A stretch of DNA of 25,664 bases from a bacterium (GTDB lineage Bacteria > Spirochaetota > UBA4802 > UBA5550), in contig JAAENB010000802.1 of assembly GCA_024224995.1 (NCBI GenBank), positions 1-25,664 of the forward strand, written 5' to 3'. Positions 10,698 to 25,664 of the stretch are shown piece after piece. Every line of letters begins with the position of its first letter. Position 1 is the first letter of the stretch. A program made the position numbers and the translations under genes. The notes under the pieces were generated by a model. It did not search any database. It was not told the DNA's origin and saw only the letters and a program-made list of their open reading frames with translations.

Positions 10698-11456
10698 ATG
10701 GTGAGAAAAAAATTAACATTAGAGCAAATCCAAAAAAAAGCAAAAGAGCGTGGCGGAGTATGTATATCGAAACGGTATGTGAACAGCAAGTTGCCGTTAA
10801 AATGGCAATGCAAAAACGGCCATGTGTGGCAGGCTCCGTATAGTTATATTCGCCAGGGTAATTGGTGTGCTGAGTGTTCCGGTAAAAAGAAATTAACAAT
10901 AAAACTGATGCGGGAAATAGCCCGGGAACGGGGTGGAAAATGTTTATCAAAAGAATACGTGAATAATGTTACCAAATTAAAGTGGCAGTGTAAAGAAGGA
11001 CATACCTGGGAGTCTATCCCCCGGAGTGTCAAAACCGGCCGCTGGTGCCCGGTATGCGGGAAAAAAGAAGGCGGGGAAAAAAGGAAAGCGTCCATAAAAG
11101 ATATGCAGAAAATAGCGAAAAAAAACGGCGGAAAATGTCTTTCCGTGAAATATGAAAACAGTTTAAGCAAACTTTCCTGGCAATGTAAAAAGGGCCATGT
11201 GTGGCAGGCTATTCCCAAAAGCGTAACCCAGGGGAACTGGTGCTCCGAATGCAGCGGTAAAAAGAAGCTGACTATTGAGCTCATGCGGCAAATGGCGAAG
11301 GAGCACGGCGGAAAATGTTTATCCAAAAAATATATTAATGGGAATGAAAAGCTCAGGTGGCAATGCAAGGAAAAACATGAATGGGACGCTGCTCCCCGAA
11401 CCATACGAAGAGGGACCTGGTGCCCGTTTTGCGCGAATAAAAAAAAGGGAAGATAA
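10698..11456 (+). CDS. Protein of four tandem zinc-ribbon (treble-clef) repeats
   Basis: The 252 residues are almost entirely four copies of a 55-60-residue unit (about 5-60, 65-120, 131-185 and 190-245). Each unit has a basic helix with M/I...A-x-ERGGKCLSK-x-Y-x-N, then WQC-x3-H-x-W, then a G-x-WC-x2-C knuckle. The metal ligands are C38/H42/C57/C60, C98/H102/C117/C120, C163/H167/C182/C185 and C223/H227/C242/C245, all intact. The unit matches the probable zinc-ribbon domain often attached to very-short-patch-repair-type or homing endonucleases (recalled as DUF4379-like), but no nuclease domain is present here. Strong basicity suggests nucleic-acid binding. AAAGG lies 5 nt before the ATG, and the promoter is excellent. 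The role could be a DNA-binding regulator, a nuclease accessory or an orphaned specificity module. Confidence 0.82.
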   Translation: MVRKKLTLEQIQKKAKERGGVCISKRYVNSKLPLKWQCKNGHVWQAPYSYIRQGNWCAECSGKKKLTIKLMREIARERGGKCLSKEYVNNVTKLKWQCKEGHTWESIPRSVKTGRWCPVCGKKEGGEKRKASIKDMQKIAKKNGGKCLSVKYENSLSKLSWQCKKGHVWQAIPKSVTQGNWCSECSGKKKLTIELMRQMAKEHGGKCLSKKYINGNEKLRWQCKEKHEWDAAPRTIRRGTWCPFCANKKKGR

Positions 11457-11536: not shown

Positions 11537-12568
11537 ATGAACAAAGATACACTGCAAGAAATTTTAGAAAAACATGATGAGTGGTTATCTTCCGAAGGTG
11601 CGCTTGGGGAGAAAGCGATTCTGAATAATGCCGACCTGAGTTCCATGAGTCTCAGGGAAGTTAACCTGGGCAAAGCAAATCTCCAAAAAATAAATTTTAC
11701 CGGAACCAATCTTAATCTCGCCAATCTCAGTGGTGCCGACCTGAGTAGTGCCGCTCTCTCTGAAGCCGATCTCAGCGGTGCGGATTTACGCAACGCGAAT
11801 TTAAGCCGCGCCGGTCTTTCCGGAGTAGATCTGAGCGGTGCCGATTTAAGCGGTGCCGATTTAAGCGGAGCGGACCTGGGGGATGCCGATCTGAGTAGTG
11901 CCAATCTTCAAGGAGTGAACCTTTGCGGGGCTTTGTTTTCAAATACGGTTTTTACAAACGCAGAGCTGACTTCATTGAAAATTAATATCAGCACATTTGA
12001 ACGTATCCCCGGAGAAATTAGAAATAAATATGAAAAGACCTGGTTCTTCCTGGACAGCAGCGGTGACTATTTAAACAAAAACCATATTACGCGTTCAATT
12101 GAGTTCCCGCCCCAGTATCTTTCCGCCGGCGTTTCCATTCTTAATTACTTTGCTTCCGTGCTGCGGGAAAAATACCCGGATGAAAAATCAAAAGTGAGAA
12201 TTGACCAGGACGGAAATAAAGTCACTATGATTATTGAACACCCTGAGGGCGAGAAAGAGATTATTGAAAAAGAATTAAATGACTATGGGCTTGTTGTTAA
12301 AGGGGATATGCCCATTGAAGAATTTACTCAAGATCCGTTTCTTATTCTTGAGTTGAAAAATGAATTACGGTTCGCGCAATTTCGTATTGAGCAGCAAAAA
12401 GAAATGCTGCTGTTAAAAGACTCCTCGTTACGAGATAAAGATATTTTGATTGATAGCTTGAAAACGATTATCAGTCAGGGGGTGAAGAAAACTGCTCAGG
12501 AAGATATTTCTATTGAAGAGTTTTCCAACGCCTTTGATTCTTCCTGGAGGGCTAAAACCGGTGAATAA
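11537..12568 (+). CDS. Pentapeptide-repeat protein with C-terminal sensor-like domain and coiled coil
   Basis: This 343-residue protein opens with a helix (MNKDTLQEILEKHDEWLSSE). About 24 pentapeptide repeats of the A(D/N)LS-x type (residues 31-150) follow and will fold as a right-handed beta-helix. A second domain (about 185-285) reads IEFPPQYLSAGVSILNYFAS and onward to NDYGLVVKGDMPIEEF. From memory this SIL-YF...YGLVV module recurs in uncharacterised bacterial proteins, but I cannot name it. The end (about 285-330) is a coiled coil (ELRFAQFRIEQQKEMLLLKD). There is no signal peptide. No clear ribosome-binding site precedes the ATG; TTGACA at 11502-11507 is placed as for a leaderless or very short-leader message, but its -10 is poor. 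The stop overlaps the start of the next gene, so the two are translationally coupled. Confidence 0.8.
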   Translation: MNKDTLQEILEKHDEWLSSEGALGEKAILNNADLSSMSLREVNLGKANLQKINFTGTNLNLANLSGADLSSAALSEADLSGADLRNANLSRAGLSGVDLSGADLSGADLSGADLGDADLSSANLQGVNLCGALFSNTVFTNAELTSLKINISTFERIPGEIRNKYEKTWFFLDSSGDYLNKNHITRSIEFPPQYLSAGVSILNYFASVLREKYPDEKSKVRIDQDGNKVTMIIEHPEGEKEIIEKELNDYGLVVKGDMPIEEFTQDPFLILELKNELRFAQFRIEQQKEMLLLKDSSLRDKDILIDSLKTIISQGVKKTAQEDISIEEFSNAFDSSWRAKTGE

Positions 12569-12971
12569 GGATCCTTTTGAAATCGTTACCGAATATTGCC
12601 GTTCTATTAAAAAAGGCTCCTCTATTCGAAATACGGCTTTTTGCTTGTATTATAAAAAGTACCTCAGTGCCGTAAAAAAACATACCGCTGAAAAAGGGGG
12701 AGAGCTGTCTGTTGCTGAAATCGAGAATATTAAAAACACCCTCCTTACGGCAGAGGCTGTTGAGCATGATATTTTCCTGGCTGAGTCTGTTTTTAAAGAG
12801 AGTGCCGCTCAACTTGAAGTTTCTTTTAAAAAGAAATATAAACGGGGAAATTTTCACCTGTCTCTATGGGCCAGTGTTTTAGGCACGTTTATTTATTCGG
12901 TTTTATTGCTGGTTGTTTTTAAATTGGCAGAAGAGCAGGTTAAGGCCTGGCTTTCGGGGTTTATGAAATAG
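12561..12971 (+). CDS. Small helical protein with C-terminal membrane anchor
   Basis: I chose GTG 12561, which has GGAGG 10 nt upstream and overlaps the previous stop (GTGAATAA); an earlier ATG at 12513 lies inside the pentapeptide gene. The 136-residue product has a mainly helical soluble part (residues 1-98, with HTAEKGGELSVAEIENIKNT and a basic KKKYKRGNFH just before the membrane). One strong membrane helix follows at about 102-122 (LWASVLGTFIYSVLLLVVF), with a short tail. No enzymatic motif is seen. The tight coupling to the pentapeptide-repeat protein and the SLOG gene 29 bp downstream suggest it is the membrane partner, possibly the effector, of that cassette. It shows only one membrane helix, unlike the two of SLATT effectors. 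Confidence 0.75.
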   Translation: MNKDPFEIVTEYCRSIKKGSSIRNTAFCLYYKKYLSAVKKHTAEKGGELSVAEIENIKNTLLTAEAVEHDIFLAESVFKESAAQLEVSFKKKYKRGNFHLSLWASVLGTFIYSVLLLVVFKLAEEQVKAWLSGFMK

Positions 12972-13000
12972 ATCATTGATTTTTTTAAGGAAAATTAAGA

Positions 13001-13405
13001 ATGAAAATAGGCATAGTTGGAGCCAGGGACTTTAAAAACCTTCAATTAGTAAGAGACTACGTCAATCTTTTGCCGAATTTTTGCATAGTTTCAGGCGGCG
13101 CAAAAGGTGTTGACTCGACGGCGATTGACCAGGCTAAAAAGAATAAATGCCCGTATATTGAATTTTTACCCGATATTTCAAATTGTAAAACCGGGCATGA
13201 GTTTACAAAAAAATATTATGAAAGAAATAAAAAAATTGTTGATGAAGTTGATGTCCTGGTAGCCTTTACCGATAAACAAACCGGCGGTACCTGGGATACC
13301 ATAAGAAGGGCGGCAAATAAAGGAATACCCGTAAAAATATTTGAGTCTTCATCGGAGTTCGATGAATATGCAGCAGTGTTTGAGCAGCAGCAGGAATTAT
13401 TTTAG
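13001..13405 (+). CDS. SLOG-superfamily (DprA/YspA-like) nucleotide-binding protein
   Basis: The 134 residues form a Rossmann-like SLOG domain: MKIGIVGARDF at the start, then CIVSGGAKGVDSTAIDQAKK (residues 28-47) with the hallmark SGGA-x-GVD loop. Later come NKKIVDEVDVLVAFTD (strand plus acidic loop) and QTGGTWDTIRRAANKGIPVKIF, the second nucleotide-contact segment. This fits YspA/cpYpsA-type SLOG proteins, which bind nucleotides or derivatives; in conflict systems they are proposed sensors or producers of nucleotide signals. AAGGAAAATTAAG precedes the ATG. It is the third gene of the 11537-14008 cassette. Phage and plasmid genomes also carry such small SLOG proteins with unknown roles. Confidence 0.85.
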   Translation: MKIGIVGARDFKNLQLVRDYVNLLPNFCIVSGGAKGVDSTAIDQAKKNKCPYIEFLPDISNCKTGHEFTKKYYERNKKIVDEVDVLVAFTDKQTGGTWDTIRRAANKGIPVKIFESSSEFDEYAAVFEQQQELF

Positions 13406-13429
13406 AATTATTTAATCAAGGAGAAACAA

Positions 13430-14008
13430 ATGGGAATTACAATCTTTTATAAAGGCAATCTTAATGATCCGGACTTAATCGAATCCATATGCCTGGACCT
13501 GGAAAATATAGCAAAAGAACTTGAATGGGAATATCTCCGTAGTGAAAAAGATTATTCGAATAATACAATACATCTTAAAGGAATTATTCTCAGGCCCCAT
13601 AAAGACTGTGACTCTTTTTGCTTCAGTTTTACTGAGAAAGGCAAACTGTTGTTTGCTCCAATGCTGGAAGTGGACCCTGAAAATAAAAATATAGAAAAAT
13701 ATGATACCTTTGTTAAAACTCAATTTGCCCCGGTGGAAATTCATATGGCCATTATAAAAATATTAAAATTCATCAAATCGAAATATATGGCCGATCTTGA
13801 CGTGAGAGATGACGGCGGTTATTGGGAATCGGGGGATGAAGAAGAGTTAAAAGGGAATCTTGGGCAGGTGGGTCTTATGATGGATATTGCCACCAGCGCG
13901 ATATCGGAAATGAATGATGATGATAGTCGATCTCATGAAGAGTTGGTTGGGAAAATTGAGCGGGTTGTGAGTGAAAAGATGAAAGAGCACTATGACAAGG
14001 CGCATTGA
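13430..14008 (+). CDS. Uncharacterised acidic protein, 192 aa
   Basis: No named family is recognised, but the protein has features I recall from a widespread uncharacterised group. It starts MGITIFYKGNLNDPDLIE, has a central LKGIILRPHKDCDSFCFSF segment, and then KTQFAPVEIHMAIIKILKFI and SKYMADLDVRDDGGYWESGD, closing with a helical acidic tail. The conserved-looking PH, TQF-x2-E-x-H and D-x-GGYWE-x-GD blocks could form a binding or catalytic site, which is inference. AAGGAG lies 7-8 nt before the ATG and the gap from the SLOG gene is 24 bp, so it belongs to the same operon. The hairpin at 14012-14037 follows its stop. Confidence 0.72.
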   Translation: MGITIFYKGNLNDPDLIESICLDLENIAKELEWEYLRSEKDYSNNTIHLKGIILRPHKDCDSFCFSFTEKGKLLFAPMLEVDPENKNIEKYDTFVKTQFAPVEIHMAIIKILKFIKSKYMADLDVRDDGGYWESGDEEELKGNLGQVGLMMDIATSAISEMNDDDSRSHEELVGKIERVVSEKMKEHYDKAH

Positions 14009-14054
14009 CTATTTTGGGTGGAAAAATTATTTTCCTCCAAAACCACAAAACATC

Positions 14055-14112: not shown

Positions 14113-15525
14113 ATGAGTTCTGATCAAAAAAACTATATTAAGAATAAAGCTTTTAATATGCGAGTTAACGCAAGTGGGGTAGCTCAACAGGTCAGAAGGA
14201 AATCAAAGAGAAGTGGTGACCCAACAATTGACTATACACAGGATCTTCAACGGACTCTTGGTAATCAAGGGGTTGAGCATTTAATCAGGAGTGGAATGAT
14301 CCAACCCGATAATATTAATAGACAAATTAATATTACCCCAGCACAAGAAGCAAAATCGGCTCTTGCATCAGTTATTGCAATGAAGAATTATTCTCTATTT
14401 AGTGAATTGAATAGTAAAGGGCTTTTTGGTGATATCCAGACGAAGATGACGGTTGGTGGAGCCAATGATATTTATGAACAGGAAGCAGACAGGGTTGCAG
14501 ATGCCGTTGTTAGTATGTCTGACGCTGATATTCAACAAAAAAGCAATAACATTGAAATCCAGGGCAAAGGGGCTTCTAACGGGGCTTTTACTGTTGGCTC
14601 AAATGTAGAATCCGGCATCCGGAGCATGAAAGGTGGCGGGCAGTCGCTTTCCACGCCTATGAAAAGATATTACCATGCCCGGTTTGATCGGGATTTTAGT
14701 AACGTGCGTGTCCATACAGGCGATAAAGCCCATAAGCTCACCAAAGCCATTAATGCCCGGGCCTTTACTACGGGCAACGATGTTTTTTTTGCCAGGGGTG
14801 AGTTTTCTCCTGATACGAAGGAGGGAAAAAAACTCATGGCTCATGAGTTGACCCATGTTGTGCAACAAAAAGGCGGGATAAAGAAAAAGAGTCCGGAGAT
14901 ACAGTTGAAACATCCGGCAACCGCTAAGAAAAATGATATAACTGCGAGCTTTGTTGGAATTTTGAACAGTGCCGCAAAAGAAATGAAAAAATCAGGTTAT
15001 TTCAGGGACTGGGTTGCTGCTCCCTGGACCGTTCCTAATGCAATGTTAATGAGTAATCTCAAAAAGAAACTACCTAATTTAACGGAAAAAGATATAAATG
15101 AATTGGTTACCGGGGATGTTCATTCTGATTTACAACGAACACCTTATTTATTTCGGGAGTTTTATAGTAAAGTGAGAACAGGAGCTAAGTGGGATGTCAA
15201 AAATGGTATATACAAGAAATTTAAGTCGGGAGTTGTTTTAGCGGGCAAACTCTATCCCTTAGATGTTACGGGTAACGTCTTATTTGGTTTTGCCGGTGCT
15301 GCTTCCGGGTTTTCCGGAGAGGTCTTAACGGTTATGGCAGGTCTGGCACAAAAGAATTTTGATATTAAAAAATATGGCAAGCCAAATTACACTAGTAGTT
15401 CAAATTATGATGACCCGCGAGACCAGGCTCAAATACTGATGGGAGTAGGAATGTATAAAAAACATGGCGCTGCCGTTACCGCCGCGATTCTTGGGAAATT
15501 TCTAACAAAATTTGGGATTTATTAG
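14113..15525 (+). CDS. DUF4157-domain cargo protein with polymorphic-toxin-44-like C terminus
   Basis: The 470-residue product has the layout of contractile-injection-system cargo. The N-terminal region carries DLQRTLGNQGVEHLI (residues 44-58), a motif common at the front of DUF4157 proteins. DIYEQEADRVADAVV (119-133) and the DUF4157 core (about 178-252) follow: LSTPMKRYYHARFDRDFSNV, RAFTTGNDVFFA and the metalloprotease-like MAHELTHVVQQ with H244-E245-x2-H248. After a Lys-rich linker, residues about 295-465 look like polymorphic toxin type 44: YFRDWV, GAKWDVKNGIYKKF, LDVTGNVLFGFAGAASG and the DDPRDQAQILMGVGMY block. No injection-system structural genes are in the window, so it is an orphan cargo here or loaded by a system elsewhere. 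It has its own promoter and a G9 ribosome-binding site, and its stop overlaps the next start. Confidence 0.85.
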   Translation: MSSDQKNYIKNKAFNMRVNASGVAQQVRRKSKRSGDPTIDYTQDLQRTLGNQGVEHLIRSGMIQPDNINRQINITPAQEAKSALASVIAMKNYSLFSELNSKGLFGDIQTKMTVGGANDIYEQEADRVADAVVSMSDADIQQKSNNIEIQGKGASNGAFTVGSNVESGIRSMKGGGQSLSTPMKRYYHARFDRDFSNVRVHTGDKAHKLTKAINARAFTTGNDVFFARGEFSPDTKEGKKLMAHELTHVVQQKGGIKKKSPEIQLKHPATAKKNDITASFVGILNSAAKEMKKSGYFRDWVAAPWTVPNAMLMSNLKKKLPNLTEKDINELVTGDVHSDLQRTPYLFREFYSKVRTGAKWDVKNGIYKKFKSGVVLAGKLYPLDVTGNVLFGFAGAASGFSGEVLTVMAGLAQKNFDIKKYGKPNYTSSSNYDDPRDQAQILMGVGMYKKHGAAVTAAILGKFLTKFGIY

Positions 15526-16031
15526 TGAACTATTTTAATAAATTCAAATTGTGTATTTCTATACTTTTACTGGTATTAAGTATTAATTGTACTCCAAAGG
15601 CTGAAAAAAATATGCACCATAACGATAATAAAATGATTGAAATCTTTAATCAAAAAAAAGATTTGCTTCATGAGCTGTTCGTATTGTTTGAAAATGATAA
15701 AGGTATCATTAGCTTATTTAAAGATTGGTCTAATCCACCTGACTTATCATTAGCCGGTATAAAGAAAGATAGAGAGATCAAATATCGAGAAATAATGGAA
15801 AAGATTGGTTTGATCGGTTTGGAAAGAGAACAGAACGCGTATTATTTTATTGTAACTACTGAAGGTATGTTGGATTCGGGAAGTTATAAAGGTTTTGCTT
15901 ATTTACCGGTGAATCCGGCTAATACGTATAATTCTCTTGATGTAAGAAAAAATATTGATGCTACTCAAAAAATCCTGTATAAAAAATTGTCAGGTAAGTG
16001 GTATATTTATATCTATGAAACCGAAGATTAG
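15525..16031 (+). CDS. Lipoprotein, probable immunity protein for the preceding toxin
   Basis: The GTG start overlaps the toxin stop by one base (TAGTG), so translation is coupled. The 168-residue product has a lipoprotein signal (FKLCISILLLVLSINC, lipidated Cys 22). Its lipobox has Asn before the Cys, acceptable in spirochaetes but unusual for enterobacteria. The mature part is a small alpha/beta protein with no recognised domain (ENDKGIISLFKDWSNPPDLS, then YYFIVTTEGMLDSG and a C-terminal YKKLSGKWYIYIYE). A lipoprotein encoded by such an overlap is the usual genetic form of a periplasm-acting immunity protein. If so, the toxin acts in the periplasm or on the envelope. This is inference from position and localisation only. 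Confidence 0.72.
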   Translation: MNYFNKFKLCISILLLVLSINCTPKAEKNMHHNDNKMIEIFNQKKDLLHELFVLFENDKGIISLFKDWSNPPDLSLAGIKKDREIKYREIMEKIGLIGLEREQNAYYFIVTTEGMLDSGSYKGFAYLPVNPANTYNSLDVRKNIDATQKILYKKLSGKWYIYIYETED

Positions 16032-16145: not shown

Positions 16146-18338
16146 ATGAGAAACAAGAAACTTTATTCAATACTCATCCTCGCAATCACAGTACTTTTTA
16201 TTTTTAATGTCTCTTCGTGTTCTCCGGGAACGACACCGGAAGAAAATAATCCCACACCTAACATCAGAATATATTTTACGGAACCGTTCAGTGATCCCGG
16301 TGTTGATGATGCCCTGGCAGCATTAATCAATAAGCACCCCGCAACAGAGTATCTCGATCTGTGTTTTTATGGCCTTGACAGGGAGAATATTCTCACCGCG
16401 ATTGAACAGGCGATTAACAGGGGAGTGCATGTACGGTTTGTCGGAAATAAAGACGGTTCCGGCACCGTTGAAAGTGAAACCGGTGATTACTATGAAGGAT
16501 ATCATAGAATTGCCAGGGCTCTTGATGCAGAATTCCCCATAACAGGTAAAAAGCGAATAAACTTTCCAACCGATACGGGGTTTGATGATTTTATATTAAC
16601 CAACAGCAGCATAATGCATAATAAATTTCTCCTGTCGCTTGATCCGGAAGGCAATAAACATCTATACATGGGAACGACTAACTGTACCGATACCGGGTTT
16701 GAACGGAATAATAATGGTTCAATAGTATTTAAGCATGCAGGAATATATGATACGTACCGGGCACAGTTTGAATACTTGCTGGGACTGAGCGGCTCATCTC
16801 CTGTTAGTTCCGTTGCCACCCATACGATTGATGGAATACGAGTTGATGTGTTGTTTGCCCCACAGAAACTTGACGGTAAAACCGTTATGGATCATTTAAT
16901 GGAACGGGTGGCAGCTGCCGACAGTTCAATACACTTTATGATCTTTTCTTTTCCCCATAGAGATTTGAATGACCTTATATTGCAAAAACATCAAAGTTCT
17001 ATTGAAGTTAAAGGAGTCTTCGACCAATCACAATTAAGCAACAGCTCTGAGGAATATTTAGCTCAACGAGGAGTTCCCTGTAAAATTGACGGGAACTATC
17101 ACAATGAAGGCAGTCATGGCGGCAAGCTGCATCACAAAACCATGATACTTGATTATTCACAGGATGACGCTGTTGTTGCGACAGGTTCTTTTAATTGGAG
17201 TGATAATGCCAATGAAAACAATGATGAAAATCTAATCTTTATTCATTCGAAAAAAATTGCCGGGATCTATATGGAAGAATGGACTAAGCGATGGGATGAA
17301 GGAACCGAAGTGGCAACGGTCAGTGAAGGAGACCATGCGCAGTATCAGGATGTACTTATAAATGAAGTAATGTGGATGGGGAATAGAAATAATTCCGAAA
17401 CGGCGACATGGCAGGATGAATTTATTGAACTGAAAAATAGAACTGCTCAAACAATAGATTTAAGCGGCTGGGCTATTAAAGGCGGATCAATGAGCGGGAA
17501 AGCTCTTTTACTTTCGGACTGTTATATTTTACCAAATGAGATGCTGGTAATTCATACCTTAAGTTTCAGTGAATCCGCGTACTCTCCCGCGCGGCATAAA
17601 ATGATTGATGATTTATGTATTTCAAACGGCAGGATTGAACTGGTTCTTGAAGATCCCGATTGTACTGCTATTGATTATGCGGGAGATGGAAGCGAAGGGG
17701 ATGATTTCGCCGGGGTTAATGGGTCCGGCAGTACGGGGCCAAAGAAAAGTATGGCCAGGAATGATAGTTATAGTGACGGCACTCTTTCTGCTAATTGGTT
17801 CACTTCTAATACACAGGAAAATATCAATACTGATTATTTGACATATACATTTGGAACTCCCGGGGAAGAGAATAACTCCGGAGCCGTATCGTATAACGAG
17901 CTCGATATTGTGTTCTCGGAAGTAGCCTGGGCCGGTACCGACACTTCTACTTATGATGAATGGGTTGAATTGTATAATAATACCGCTAGCGATATTGACC
18001 TGGGAGCCTGGTCAATATCCGGCGCTTTGACTCTTGAGCTTACGGGAACAATTCCGGCATATTCGCACTTTTTGCTTGAACGAACTAACGATGATTCCGT
18101 TCCGGGTAAAACCGCGGATCAGCTGTATACCGGGGGCTTAAGTAATTCCGGCGCCGATATTTCTTTGATCTATAACAGCACAACGATTGACAGTATTTCC
18201 ATGTCCTCGGGATGGGCTGCCGGTTCTAGCAGCCCCAAATTATCCATGGAAAGAAGTAATTTGACTATCCCGGGCGGCAACAGCAATTGGCAAAACGGGG
18301 CAGGGGATGTTGAAGGTGCCCAAAACAGCAGCGATTAG
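16146..18338 (+). CDS. Surface lipoprotein: phospholipase-D-like (two HKD motifs) plus two lamin-tail domains
   Basis: The 730-residue product starts with a lipoprotein signal (lipidated Cys 25 in NVSSC). The first PLD half has H158-x-K160 with D166 and GTTNCTDTGF; the second has H329-x-K331 with D336 and GSFNWSDNANENND. Both active-site motifs are intact, so a phosphatidyl-enzyme type phosphodiesterase acting on lipid or nucleic acid outside the cytoplasm is likely. Two lamin-tail domains follow. LTD1 is about 390-520 (INEVMWMG, EFIELKNRTAQTIDLSGWAI); LTD2 is about 590-705 (FSEVAWAG, EWVELYNNTASDIDLGAWSI). In bacteria LTDs often accompany secreted nucleases and phosphoesterases. GGGGAAAGG lies just before the ATG. 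The gene ends at a perfect terminator. Confidence 0.9.
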   Translation: MRNKKLYSILILAITVLFIFNVSSCSPGTTPEENNPTPNIRIYFTEPFSDPGVDDALAALINKHPATEYLDLCFYGLDRENILTAIEQAINRGVHVRFVGNKDGSGTVESETGDYYEGYHRIARALDAEFPITGKKRINFPTDTGFDDFILTNSSIMHNKFLLSLDPEGNKHLYMGTTNCTDTGFERNNNGSIVFKHAGIYDTYRAQFEYLLGLSGSSPVSSVATHTIDGIRVDVLFAPQKLDGKTVMDHLMERVAAADSSIHFMIFSFPHRDLNDLILQKHQSSIEVKGVFDQSQLSNSSEEYLAQRGVPCKIDGNYHNEGSHGGKLHHKTMILDYSQDDAVVATGSFNWSDNANENNDENLIFIHSKKIAGIYMEEWTKRWDEGTEVATVSEGDHAQYQDVLINEVMWMGNRNNSETATWQDEFIELKNRTAQTIDLSGWAIKGGSMSGKALLLSDCYILPNEMLVIHTLSFSESAYSPARHKMIDDLCISNGRIELVLEDPDCTAIDYAGDGSEGDDFAGVNGSGSTGPKKSMARNDSYSDGTLSANWFTSNTQENINTDYLTYTFGTPGEENNSGAVSYNELDIVFSEVAWAGTDTSTYDEWVELYNNTASDIDLGAWSISGALTLELTGTIPAYSHFLLERTNDDSVPGKTADQLYTGGLSNSGADISLIYNSTTIDSISMSSGWAAGSSSPKLSMERSNLTIPGGNSNWQNGAGDVEGAQNSSD

Positions 18339-22781: not shown

Positions 22782-23570
22782 CTACACAGCTTCCATAGCC
22801 ATTTGAAAAAATGAATCATTTTCCCTTGAATCCGGAGCCTCATTATCGGAAAAACAAAGCTCCCGGGCCAGAAGATACGTTGCCATAACATCGGCATTGC
22901 AATACTGAACAAGCTTGTTTAAAGAATTTAAATCACCCTTGAGCCACTGGTAATAGAGCTCCACCGCTTCAAACCCGTCAACCTCACAAATCTCCTGAGG
23001 ACGCCATATGCCCAGTTCTTTTTCTATGAGCTTAAGCCCGCCCCGGTATCCTTTATGGTAGGCCACCCACCTGAGATCAATATGGGGGCATTCTATTTGG
23101 GGGATGTTAAAAGTCTGTTCAATAAAGGGAACATCAAAACAATTGCCGTTAAAGGAAACAAGAAGATCGGCTTCATCAACAAGATCCAGGAAATCGTCCA
23201 TGTTTTCTCCGTAGAGGAACGTGTGAAGCTTGCCCCGGTGCCAGGCCGAAATTACCGTAACATGGCTTTCGTACCAGTAGAGGCCAGTAGTTTCAATATC
23301 GAAAAACGTGGCATTTTCAAAATAGGTATGCAGAATTCGCCAGTGTTCTTTGTTGGGAAACTGGTTCACCAGGAAACCAATGTCATTGGCCTGGTATGCC
23401 TCAATGCTGTTTTGTATGGCCTCAAGAAACTGCTCTTTTCTTTTTTTCTTAAAAGGCAGCTTTTCCTGTTCCCTGATGCTGTTTTCCCAGTTGTGAAATC
23501 CCAGTTCTTTTAAGCGGGTTTCCCGCTGGGGTCCAATTCCCGGGCAGTGTACAAATACTTCGTCAATCAA
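22782..23570 (-). CDS. mrfB: MrfB/YprB-like DEDD exonuclease
   Basis: The 262-residue product has an N-terminal helix-hairpin-helix-like segment (HCPGIGPQRETRLKELGFHN, residues 8-27) and then an RNase-H-like exonuclease domain. Exo I is FFDIETTGL with D91 and E93, Exo II is SFNGNCFDVPF with its D, and Exo III is YCNADVMATYLL with its D. This matches YprB, shown in Bacillus subtilis to be MrfB, the 3'-5' exonuclease of the mitomycin-C repair pathway. It starts with TTG and overlaps the stop of the helicase gene (TTGA), with GGGAG 10 nt upstream. The MrfA-MrfB operon order is therefore conserved here. Compared with B. subtilis YprB it is shorter and lacks the long C-terminal TPR region. Confidence 0.87.
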   Translation of the reverse strand: MIDEVFVHCPGIGPQRETRLKELGFHNWENSIREQEKLPFKKKRKEQFLEAIQNSIEAYQANDIGFLVNQFPNKEHWRILHTYFENATFFDIETTGLYWYESHVTVISAWHRGKLHTFLYGENMDDFLDLVDEADLLVSFNGNCFDVPFIEQTFNIPQIECPHIDLRWVAYHKGYRGGLKLIEKELGIWRPQEICEVDGFEAVELYYQWLKGDLNSLNKLVQYCNADVMATYLLARELCFSDNEAPDSRENDSFFQMAMEAV

Positions 23571-25664
23571 TGGAGGCGCTCCCTTTTCTTTTGTAAAATA
23601 TGAGATGCCCGGTTTAACTGGAGCACCATCCTCTGGTGTTCAAGGTCTTCTTCCGGCGGCTCTACCACAGGCTCAATGGGAATTTCCCGGATAGTAACTT
23701 CAGGGATTTCAATCTCTCCCGTAGTAAGACAGGTGAGGAGCGACTTTGTGCAGGCGATTGAGGCGTTCGATTCTATGAACAGGCGTTCAAGCTCTTCGTT
23801 ATTAACCCCCGGGGGAAGGGACGTCACACAGGAAGGACATCCCGATTCGCATTCGCAGGTCTCAATTATTTCTTTACAGAATTCCAGTGAAAGCTCAATC
23901 TTTTCAAAGATCTTTTCAGCGTAGCCGACACCCCCTTCAACAGTATCGTAGAGGAAGAGGGCGCTTTTCCACTGCTGATCTTCCCGTTCAACAAGACTGA
24001 TGTCTGTGGCGATATCGTTTTTGTCTGCCATGCAGAGGCAGGGAGCAGCGTGTTTGAGAATGGACCTGAGCCCGAAAAGGGCAGCATCAACATACCATTT
24101 ATTGATCTTTTCAATTGCCGAAGTCCAGCTTTGCGGCAGGAACAGGGAAAATCCCGTAGTATCGTATTCAAAAGGATCAAGGGTAATTGGGCCATACCCG
24201 ATATTTTCATAACTCCGTTCCCGGATCTTTTTATAGAGCTTTGGCTGTTTATTAATATTGATAAATCCGAACTCAAGAGAGGCATCACGAATAGCGGCCT
24301 CTTCAAGAACTTCGGTCATTACAACCCGGGCTTCCCAAACGGCATCGGTAAAATAGTCAACCTGCACCGGCTCAACCCGGCAGAGCTTCTTTTCAAGATC
24401 AAGATCCATTGACATATACCGCCGTCCCAGGTGCTGATAAATCGCGTCTTTGTACAGGGTTCCCCGCGCACCAATGGGATCGAGCTCGCCAATGACTTCA
24501 CTGCCGCAGAATATCTCTATGTTGTAATCGGTCATGCCGCGAAGGTTTACGCCCCTGGCAGGGTAATCCTGGAGCGCGTAGCGGTAACTGTTGTGGTAGG
24601 GAACTACCGTGCCGCCCTCCTTTAAAACTTCCAGGGCTTCTTTGTAAATATACTCGTTATATTCCGGCTCCTCATTACTGAGAGGATGCTCATGCGCGGC
24701 GCAGGGAAGATGCTGGAGCAGAATATAGGGATTGTCCGCGTTAAGCCATGCCTGTTCAATTGGAGCACCCGTGAGAAAATCGGGATGATGAACCAGGTAC
24801 TGGTCAATGGGATTGTCTTTTGCCGCAAAAACCACCAGGGACTCATTGCTCTTCCTGCCGACCCTGCCAGCCTGCTGCCAGAAACTGGCTACGGCACCGG
24901 GATGCCCTGAAAGAATGCAGAGCTGTAAATCGCCAATGTCAATTCCCAGCTCCAGGGCATTGGTGCTGATTATGGCAGTGAGTTTCCCGGAAACAAGATC
25001 CCGTTCCAGCTGCCGCCGTTCATTGGGAAGAAGCCCGCCTCTGTAGGGTTTGATCTTTTTTCGGAGCTCCGCGTTCCCGTCCGTAACAGAGCGGTAAAGC
25101 CGCTCCACCTCCTGGCGCGACCGGCAAAAACAGATTGTCCTGATCCCCAGCCTGCAGGCCTCACGAAGAAGCGGGATGGACACCGATGCCGGGCCTTTGC
25201 GGTATTGGGCATGCCCGTGGCTTTGTACCAGGGGCGGGTTGATGCAGTAAATCTCCCTTTTGGGACGGGGCGACCCGTCTTTGTCTATAACCGTAAACTT
25301 CTGATGAAAAAGCGCGGAAACATGCTCGTCCGGGTTTCCCACTGTGGCGGAAGAACAGACAAAGACCGGGCTGCTGCCGTGAATGGCGCAGATCCGCTGA
25401 AGCCTTCGGAAGACATTCGAAACATGAGAGCCGTATGCCCCGCTGTAGGTATGGACTTCATCCACCACAATGTAGCGAAGCCTGGAAAGAAATCCTTTCC
25501 AGCGCCGGTTGTGGTTAGGCAGTATGCCGCTATGGAGCATATCGGGATTGGTTATAATAAAATCGGACTGGCGCTGTATTTTAGCCCGTTCCTCACGGGG
25601 CGTGTCGCCGTCAAAGGTGCCCAGCATATTCTCTTTTTTAACCACGTTTAACAGGGGACCAAAA
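23567..25664 (-). CDS. mrfA: MrfA/YprA-like DEXH helicase with DUF1998 (5' end outside window)
   Basis: The reading frame runs open through the right edge, so the N-terminal part (including Walker A) is missing; the visible part is about 699 codons. Motifs seen in order are DGDTPREERAKI (Ib region), TNPDMLH, the DEXH box VVDEVHTYSGAYGSH, CSSATVGNP (III), CFCRSRQEVERLYRS (IV), ISTNALELGIDIGDL (V) and QQAGRVGRKS (VI). The C-terminal DUF1998-type region carries the four-Cys cluster CECESGCPSC together with an upstream CLCM. This is the layout of YprA/MrfA, a 3'-5' helicase repairing mitomycin-C adducts independently of UvrABC in B. subtilis. It overlaps mrfB by a TTGA junction. Assignment rests on domain order plus the partner gene. 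Confidence 0.9.
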   Translation of the reverse strand, partial: FGPLLNVVKKENMLGTFDGDTPREERAKIQRQSDFIITNPDMLHSGILPNHNRRWKGFLSRLRYIVVDEVHTYSGAYGSHVSNVFRRLQRICAIHGSSPVFVCSSATVGNPDEHVSALFHQKFTVIDKDGSPRPKREIYCINPPLVQSHGHAQYRKGPASVSIPLLREACRLGIRTICFCRSRQEVERLYRSVTDGNAELRKKIKPYRGGLLPNERRQLERDLVSGKLTAIISTNALELGIDIGDLQLCILSGHPGAVASFWQQAGRVGRKSNESLVVFAAKDNPIDQYLVHHPDFLTGAPIEQAWLNADNPYILLQHLPCAAHEHPLSNEEPEYNEYIYKEALEVLKEGGTVVPYHNSYRYALQDYPARGVNLRGMTDYNIEIFCGSEVIGELDPIGARGTLYKDAIYQHLGRRYMSMDLDLEKKLCRVEPVQVDYFTDAVWEARVVMTEVLEEAAIRDASLEFGFININKQPKLYKKIRERSYENIGYGPITLDPFEYDTTGFSLFLPQSWTSAIEKINKWYVDAALFGLRSILKHAAPCLCMADKNDIATDISLVEREDQQWKSALFLYDTVEGGVGYAEKIFEKIELSLEFCKEIIETCECESGCPSCVTSLPPGVNNEELERLFIESNASIACTKSLLTCLTTGEIEIPEVTIREIPIEPVVEPPEEDLEHQRMVLQLNRASHILQKKRERLH

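What the first reader, a model, noticed from the sequence alone, without database searches (positions are those of the whole stretch)
11537..14008. Four-gene cassette: pentapeptide/coiled-coil protein, membrane-anchored partner, SLOG sensor, unknown acidic protein
Gene order and spacing (overlap, 29 bp, 24 bp) show one operon. A beta-helical scaffold with a second recurring domain is translationally coupled to a one-helix membrane protein and followed by a SLOG nucleotide-binding protein. SLOG domains with membrane effectors are proposed parts of nucleotide-signal conflict systems. This combination, with a pentapeptide scaffold and the GGYWE-type protein, matches no system I can name. A defence or stress-sensing role is inference.
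Basis: partly seen in the sequence, partly recalled or inferred. Interest (0 to 1): 0.72.

Follow-up and report, generated by a model that had tools for sequence, protein, structure and literature searches.

The report
Swappable-input relay with membrane partner
Four adjacent bacterial genes, probably one operon, include a protein whose unnamed linker domain is fused to very different modules in other bacteria and in viral DNA; here it is predicted to relay a signal, likely through the membrane protein encoded next to it, while the other two genes were absent from the related loci examined.

Summary
Four same-strand genes lie at 11537-14008 (8-bp overlap, gaps of 29 and 24 bp). They encode a pentapeptide protein (P1), a single-pass membrane protein (P2), a SLOG protein and an acidic protein (P4).

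None of 49 loci encoding P1's C-terminal domain showed a P2, SLOG or P4 relative; none of 11 P4 loci showed SLOG, P1-domain or P2; and a word-based search of 5.8 billion proteins found no relative of P2.

The novelty is P1's C-terminal domain (about residues 186-258) plus coiled coil, for which no Pfam, PHROG, PADLOC or clear structural match was found. Elsewhere it joins swappable modules: pentapeptide, leucine-rich repeats, kinase, receiver, sigma-54 ATPase, FtsZ-like GTPase, ClpX zinc finger, Clp_N, with TIR as one C-terminal partner. It also occurs in viral contigs, two Vibrio phages and a plasmid. Some members have membrane genes next door; one cyanobacterium has a fused and a split version of the same C-terminal module.

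I propose that P1 and P2 form an input-relay-output pair with the membrane output as a separate protein. It resembles bacterial TRADD-N systems but fails their sequence tests. Function is untested.

The parts
11537..12568 (+). P1, 343 aa: pentapeptide beta-helix, junction domain and coiled coil
   Evidence: ORF; Pfam; modular relatives; coding signal
11618..11995 (+). Pentapeptide repeat region of P1, about residues 28-153 (predicted input arm)
   Evidence: PF00805 E 1.2e-40, PF13599, PF13576; outer limits read from the sequence
12092..12310 (+). Junction domain of P1, about residues 186-258, consensus RSIEFPPEY.QAG.SILNYF...LREKYP...AKV.IEQDG..V.MIIE...G..EIIEKAL.EY.LVV.G
   Evidence: Conserved block of alignments A1 and A3; no PDB or viral Foldseek match at E<=0.001; no PADLOC match and no PHROG match to this part
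12335..12499 (+). Long helix, predicted coiled coil, P1 residues 267-321
   Evidence: AlphaFold2 helix 106-160 of the folded fragment, block pLDDT 89-95
12561..12971 (+). P2, 136 aa, GTG start overlapping the P1 stop by 8 bp; C-terminal single transmembrane helix; no relative found
12852..12932 (+). Transmembrane stretch of P2, about residues 98-124
   Evidence: Hydropathy, peak 2.25
12546..12551 (+). Shine-Dalgarno-like GGAGGG for P2, inside the P1 coding region
   Evidence: Sequence printed
13001..13405 (+). Stand-alone SLOG protein, 134 aa (DprA/YspA-like); accessory, link to P1 not seen elsewhere
   Evidence: residues 3-58 also match PADLOC PsyrA 3.2e-9 and residues 3-56 ShosA 1.2e-7
13430..14008 (+). 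P4, 192 aa, MGITI...KTQFAP...GGYWE family; confident alpha/beta model; accessory, link to P1 not seen elsewhere
   Evidence: 53 relatives besides itself; AlphaFold2 mean pLDDT 90.8
14012..14042 (+). Hairpin after P4, a possible operon end (no T-run)
   Evidence: z -2.0

Best explanation
P1 and P2 likely form a two-protein signalling pair: P1's pentapeptide arm is predicted to receive a cue, its junction domain and coiled coil would relay it by changing or assembling the complex, and the membrane protein P2 would act as the output. Shown here: the gene order and overlap; P2's single hydrophobic helix; the junction domain's occurrence with many different modules; one chain that runs from an N-terminal hydrophobic (TM-like, by eye) region through this domain to a TIR domain (P0015); and, in one cyanobacterium, the same C-terminal module fused in one gene (L116) and encoded by a separate overlapping gene in another (L117). 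Inferred: that pentapeptides are the input, that P2 touches P1, that the output damages or gates the membrane, and that the trigger is invasion or stress. SLOG and P4 are probably co-transcribed passengers or local add-ons, not core parts.
For: Modularity: 35 homologues of P1 residues 160-343 besides itself, 33 genome loci, 16 viral-contig loci. Pfam-supported partners: pentapeptide, response receiver in P0006 and C-terminal TIR in P0015, and sigma-54 ATPase, protein kinase, FtsZ/tubulin, ClpX C4 zinc finger, Clp_N and leucine-rich repeats.

Output next door: L002, a SAR324 pentapeptide member, is followed 19 bp later by an ORF with one TM stretch and TPR-like repeats (repeats by eye). In 7 of 49 loci (L016, L025, L038, L040, L041, L042, L045; some near-identical) an ORF with 2-4 predicted TM stretches starts after a 6-bp gap or overlaps the end of the domain gene.

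Split versus fused: L117's separate product (119 or 153 aa, start uncertain) overlaps the domain gene by 16 bp. Its residues 56-152 match the fused C-terminus of L116 (54% over 99 columns, E 4e-28). Its N-terminal part shares a 23-residue motif (61%) with the domain protein's C-terminus (0 of 2000 shuffles). Pfam sees in it only a weak EAD1 (effector-associated domain 1) match, 16.8 against a cut-off of 24.2 bits.

P1 stops 22 residues after the coiled coil, while close relatives P0002 and P0003 continue for more than 100 residues. Translation overlap, SD site and coding signal make P2 a real, coupled gene.
Against: P2 has no detected relative, so nothing evolutionary ties it to P1 beyond adjacency in one contig. 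P1's tail and P2 share no paired motif (285 of 2000 shuffles score as well). Most of the 49 loci have no TM gene next door. The relatives' C-terminal tails are only mildly hydrophobic: no 19-residue window in the last 60 residues of the 83 non-redundant proteins, some of them truncated, reached 1.6. Three pentapeptide relatives (P0004, P0005, P0016) end, by eye, without a helical tail. The 7 TM-adjacent loci look like one lineage (Acinetobacter where the record is named), and chance adjacency was not modelled. No function was tested.
Confidence: 0.42

Rival explanations
1. The junction domain is a diverged bacterial TRADD-N domain and P1-P2 belongs to the bacterial TRADD-N conflict systems of Kaur and colleagues.
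For: Same position between two other modules; same partner types (pentapeptide, TIR). In passages of PMC8195603 and PMC7159879 TRADD-N is a constant bridging module. Cyanobacterial TRADD-N genes with C-terminal pentapeptides exist, such as L084 (PF20694 E 2.4e-11), whose locus was fetched through a neighbouring match to the membrane family CyanoTRADDas_TM. By eye the segment YP...I...G..I.IVIEG resembles P1's.
Against: P1 has no PF20694 match at E<=1. hhalign of A1 and A3 against 6 TRADD-N sequences gives 0.3% probability. The small-residue-plus-serine motif is present as GS in 1 of 42 rows. The model shows helix-strand-strand-strand-helix, not the RRM order, though its first 24 residues are poor.
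Confidence: 0.2
2. All four genes are one nucleotide-signal conflict cassette in which SLOG senses or makes a nucleotide signal and P2 is the membrane effector.
For: Operon spacing; SLOG matches PsyrA and ShosA over its N-terminal half.
Against: No co-occurrence seen: 0 of 49 P1-domain loci and 0 of 11 P4 loci. P4 was found in only 1 of 297 and 7 of 395 genomes of two phyla.
Confidence: 0.13
3. P1 is a gyrase- or DNA-binding-protein mimic of the Qnr/MfpA kind tethered to the membrane by P2.
For: Pentapeptide region scores against Qnr and MfpA models.
Against: All those scores lie far below the curated cut-offs (best Qnr-family 42.5 against 240 bits; MfpA 32.9 against 360). The same junction domain carries unrelated modules elsewhere, so the repeat is only one option.
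Confidence: 0.07
4. The genes are unrelated small cargo genes in a variable region beside an eCIS toxin gene, co-directional by chance.
For: No conserved adjacency seen for any pair; the next gene is an eCIS_core plus Ntox44 protein.
Against: P1 and P2 overlap by 8 bp with an SD site and the three spacings are tight; chance would not favour this.
Confidence: 0.18

Closest known systems
Bacterial TRADD-N systems (Kaur et al. 2020, 2021; PF20694 TRADD-like_N)
   Same: A small bridging domain between variable modules, including pentapeptides and TIR; a membrane family named after TRADD-N association exists (PF20712).
   Different: Sequence tests fail. In P1 the repeats are N-terminal and the proposed output is in trans; in the cyanobacterial TRADD-N examples seen here pentapeptides follow the domain.
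Bacterial amyloid signalling sequences (BASS): paired motifs at the ends of neighbouring proteins
   Same: In cyanobacterial relatives L117 and L122 the domain protein's C-terminus and a neighbouring product share a Gly/Asn/Asp-rich motif.
   Different: The window's P1-P2 pair lacks it. BASS as read in passages of PMC8086366 pairs Bell and NLR proteins; amyloid formation was not tested.
SLOG proteins of conflict systems (PsyrA, ShosA, YspA/YpsA)
   Same: DprA/YspA-like core.
   Different: Stand-alone 134-aa protein; only residues 3-58 match PsyrA and 3-56 ShosA.
Pentapeptide repeat proteins (Qnr, MfpA, HetL)
   Same: Pentapeptide repeats.
   Different: Below the cut-off of all 17 NCBIfam models listed and fused to the junction domain.

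Membership tests
Bacterial TRADD-N | Match to PF20694 TRADD-like_N | tested here: not met
   No PF20694 for P1 at E<=1. For the 42 A3 rows it is not among the 25 of 49 families displayed.
Bacterial TRADD-N | Tiny residue plus Ser in the beta2-beta3 turn | tested here: not met
   P1 has GN; GS in 1 of 42 rows at the aligned position. Motif as described in PMC8195603 (passage).
Bacterial TRADD-N | Profile-profile similarity | tested here: inconclusive
   hhalign 0.3%, but the TRADD-N side had only 6 sequences.
Bacterial TRADD-N | RRM-like fold | tested here: inconclusive
   Model mean pLDDT 79.7, first 24 residues under 50; Foldseek and VIA-align gave no clear match.
Bacterial TRADD-N | Sits between two other modules | tested here: met
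   Hydrophobic N-terminal region - domain - TIR in P0015; FtsZ, kinase, receiver or repeats N-terminal.
SLOG superfamily | Match to a curated SLOG model above cut-off | tested here: met
   PF02481 36.1 against 29.6 bits; PF10686 31.9 against 28.2.
SLOG nucleotide-signal conflict cassette | SLOG gene recurrently next to the membrane effector or sensor gene | tested here: not met
   0 of 49 P1-domain loci, 0 of 11 P4 loci; single-sequence queries.
PsyrTA / Shosta | Full-length PsyrA or ShosA plus partner gene | tested here: not met
   Only residues 3-58 and 3-56 match, profile positions 134-193 of 398 and 118-175 of 303; of the six proteins scanned no other matched a model of either system.
BASS amyloid signalling | Paired motif at the ends of neighbouring proteins | tested here: not met
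   P1 tail against P2: 285 of 2000 shuffles score as well. In relatives L117 (0 of 2000) and L122 (1 of 2000) a pair is present.
Qnr/MfpA | Score above subfamily cut-off | tested here: not met

The most novel reading that the evidence does not exclude
P1's junction domain defines an unnamed, phage-borne signalling platform whose N-terminal slot is filled with copies of host machines (ClpX zinc finger, Clp N-domain, FtsZ, sigma-54 ATPase, kinase, receiver) or repeat scaffolds. These act as integrated decoys that invaders hit, firing a swappable C-terminal or in-trans output at the membrane or through TIR: a prokaryotic counterpart of plant integrated-decoy receptors.
Probability: 0.12. Interest if true: 0.88.

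Novelty: new variant of a known kind. Interest (0 to 1): 0.52.

Why it matters
A domain for which I found no family model and nothing recognisable in the papers searched joins at least eight Pfam-recognised N-terminal modules to several kinds of C-terminus, across many bacterial groups and in mobile elements. If it is a relay, it would be a second bridging adaptor beside bacterial TRADD-N and would give a simple assay: swap the input, keep the relay, read the output. The housekeeping-like inputs (ClpX finger, Clp_N, FtsZ) would make the idea of bacterial decoy receptors directly testable.

Tried and rejected
Four-gene cassette as a unit: rejected for lack of co-occurrence.

TRADD-N membership: attractive by eye and by architecture, rejected by PF20694 and the serine motif; profile-profile was also negative but shallow.

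C-terminal tails as membrane helices: hydropathy under 1.6 in all 83 non-redundant proteins of 89, so not claimed. The tail tally used rough regular expressions (44 type i, 10 type ii, 2 type iii, 27 none of 83); some 'none' rows, such as L002, L017, P0003 and P0027, look like type i or ii by eye, and others are truncated. Its N-terminal regular expressions failed (71 of 83 unclassified) and are not used.

TM neighbours at larger gaps (L005, L032) were not counted. The Acinetobacter-type TM partners had no Pfam match above cut-off (two tested).

Neighbourhood tally: 110 ORFs out of 158 listed from 44 of the 49 loci, five near-duplicate loci left out. Displayed hits include 6 phage integrases and 3 Ogr/Delta (25 of 120 Pfam families shown) and 4 PbeA plus restriction enzymes (25 of 54 PADLOC families shown). 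There was no control set, so no enrichment is claimed. P4 in viral contigs: none confirmed.
Full report
What is there. The window (25,664 bases, 43% G+C) holds four co-directional genes at 11537-14008 exactly as described. P2 is best started at GTG 12561, which uses the GGAGGG site and gives an 8-bp overlap with P1; the other gaps are 29 and 24 bp, and all four frames carry coding signal. Upstream on the same strand, 80 bp away, is a DUF4379 zinc-finger repeat gene. Downstream, 104 bp away, is an eCIS_core plus Ntox44 gene. A hairpin without T-run follows P4. Transcription was not tested.

P1. Residues about 28-153 are pentapeptide repeats. The rest has no Pfam match above cut-off. Searching residues 160-343 found 36 proteins including P1 itself. 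Aligned, they share a block RSIEFPPEY..AG.SILNYF...LREKYP...KV.IEQDG..V.MIIE...G..EIIEKAL.EY.LVV (19 rows; 42 rows, mostly from loci), followed by a long helix in the model. I call it the junction domain; the name is mine.

Where the domain occurs. A genome scan found 33 loci in organisms named in the record titles as Desulfobacterales, SAR324, Vreelandella, Stahlbacteria, Marinoscillum, Flavobacterium, Acinetobacter, Vibrio, Burkholderia, Pseudomonas, Azospirillum, Planctomycetaceae, Gottfriedia, a Prochloraceae cyanobacterium and others. A viral scan found 16 loci. A tblastn with one member (L014) found 2 of 50,697 phage records, both Vibrio cyclitrophicus phages, and 1 of 72,556 plasmids. 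In the one phage region viewed, the gene lies beside a gene noted as tape measure, on the other strand. The domain is rare within groups: 1 of 297 genomes in the phylum of L001's genome, the centre itself, and 2 of 146 in the phylum of L022's genome, again including the centre; in some genomes only part of the first-look candidates was scored.

What it is fused to. N-terminal modules with Pfam support: pentapeptide (P1; P0002 and P0003; L031; precomputed for P0004, P0005, P0016); response receiver (P0006); sigma-54 activator ATPase (L004); protein kinase with zinc ribbon (L010); FtsZ/tubulin (L048); ClpX C4 zinc finger (L026); Clp_N (L028); leucine-rich repeats (L018) (all). L018's frame is interrupted inside the domain. 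A helix-turn-helix in L029 is below cut-off. Many other members are 440-480 residues long with an unassigned N-terminal region of about 190 residues. P0015 has N-terminal hydrophobic stretches (by eye), then the domain, then a C-terminal TIR domain. Desulfobacterales HSG2 has three tandem pentapeptide-domain genes, the first with five predicted membrane stretches.

Outputs in cis and in trans. Many relatives continue past the coiled coil with one of a few C-terminal modules (rough patterns). P1 does not: it ends 22 residues after the helix, and P2 starts. In the cyanobacterium of L022 one member (L116, 2340-3830) has a C-terminal module fused. In a second copy (L117, 920-2413) that module is absent, and a separate upstream gene overlapping by 16 bp encodes it (54% over 99 columns, E 4e-28). 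The two L117 products also share a 23-residue Asn/Gly-rich motif, 61% identical (0 of 2000 shuffles). The separate product has only a below-cut-off EAD1 match (16.8 against 24.2 bits). In another genome of that phylum (L122, domain gene cut by the contig start) the domain protein's tail and a nearby product share a GD-rich motif (1 of 2000 shuffles). P1 and P2 share none (285 of 2000). Membrane genes directly follow the domain gene in 7 of 49 loci, all of similar type, and in L002 an ORF with one TM stretch and TPR-like repeats follows a pentapeptide member by 19 bp. These parallels support, but do not prove, P2 as P1's output.

SLOG and P4. SLOG passes two curated Pfam cut-offs. P4 belongs to a family with 53 relatives besides itself, folds confidently (pLDDT 90.8), has no clear PDB match, was found in 1 of 297 and 7 of 395 genomes of two phyla, and sits in mixed neighbourhoods. 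Neither was found with P1's domain elsewhere.

Relation to TRADD-N. In the passages read of PMC8195603 (abstract and found passages) and PMC7159879 (found passages), bacterial TRADD-N is a bridging module coupled to pentapeptides, TIR, caspases and more. The junction domain works like that on paper. It is not filed there: no PF20694 match, GS in 1 of 42 rows, and hhalign 0.3% with a shallow partner profile.

Mechanism. My best reading is input (pentapeptides), relay (junction domain and coiled coil), output in trans (P2 at the membrane). Only the anatomy is shown. The trigger, the binding of P1 to P2 and the effect on the membrane are inferred; a conflict or stress role is suggested by phage carriage, the TIR fusion and neighbours such as restriction genes, without any control for chance.

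Literature. Searches for TRADD-N with death domain and SLOG, TRADD-N with bacterial, pentapeptide repeat with TRADD, bacterial amyloid signalling, pentapeptide with anti-phage defence, transmembrane and SLOG (no paper) and integrated decoy with FtsZ (no paper) gave nothing that I recognised as this domain; of the papers listed I read passages of three (PMC8195603, PMC7159879, PMC8086366). Supplementary lists could not be read, so the domain could be listed there.

Noticed in passing
14113-15525 (+), then 15525-16031 (+): eCIS_core protein with a C-terminal Ntox44 domain, followed at 1-bp overlap by a small lipoprotein-like gene that may be its immunity partner (inference).
   Followed up: no
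10698-11456 (+): Protein with four DUF4379 treble-clef zinc-finger matches, 80 bp upstream of P1 on the same strand.
   Followed up: no
L117 474-935 and 920-2413; L122 1-624 and 832-1479: Cyanobacterial relatives with paired Asn/Gly- or GD-rich motifs in neighbouring products, reminiscent of bacterial amyloid signalling motifs. Between the two L122 genes lies an ORF that looks like a BrnT toxin (recalled, not tested).
   Followed up: partly
L048 5023-6681, L049 916-2562: FtsZ/tubulin GTPase fused to the junction domain in viral contigs (L049 by sequence resemblance, Pfam run only on L048).
   Followed up: partly
L001 5245-10264: Three tandem pentapeptide plus junction-domain genes in Desulfobacterales HSG2; two share the C-terminal tail RRKWYEISGEGL...; the third stops at RRK.
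   Followed up: partly
L007 7479-8750; L018/L121 3698-5367: Junction-domain genes interrupted inside the domain; left as separate pieces.
   Followed up: no
L084 1896-3191: TRADD-like_N protein with C-terminal pentapeptides, next to a CyanoTRADDas_TM match: the mirror order of P1.
   Followed up: partly
16146-18338 (+); 23567-25645 and 22782-23570 (-): Large secreted-looking protein with HxK motifs like phospholipase D, and a helicase plus exonuclease-like pair resembling YprA/YprB (recalled, not tested).
   Followed up: no
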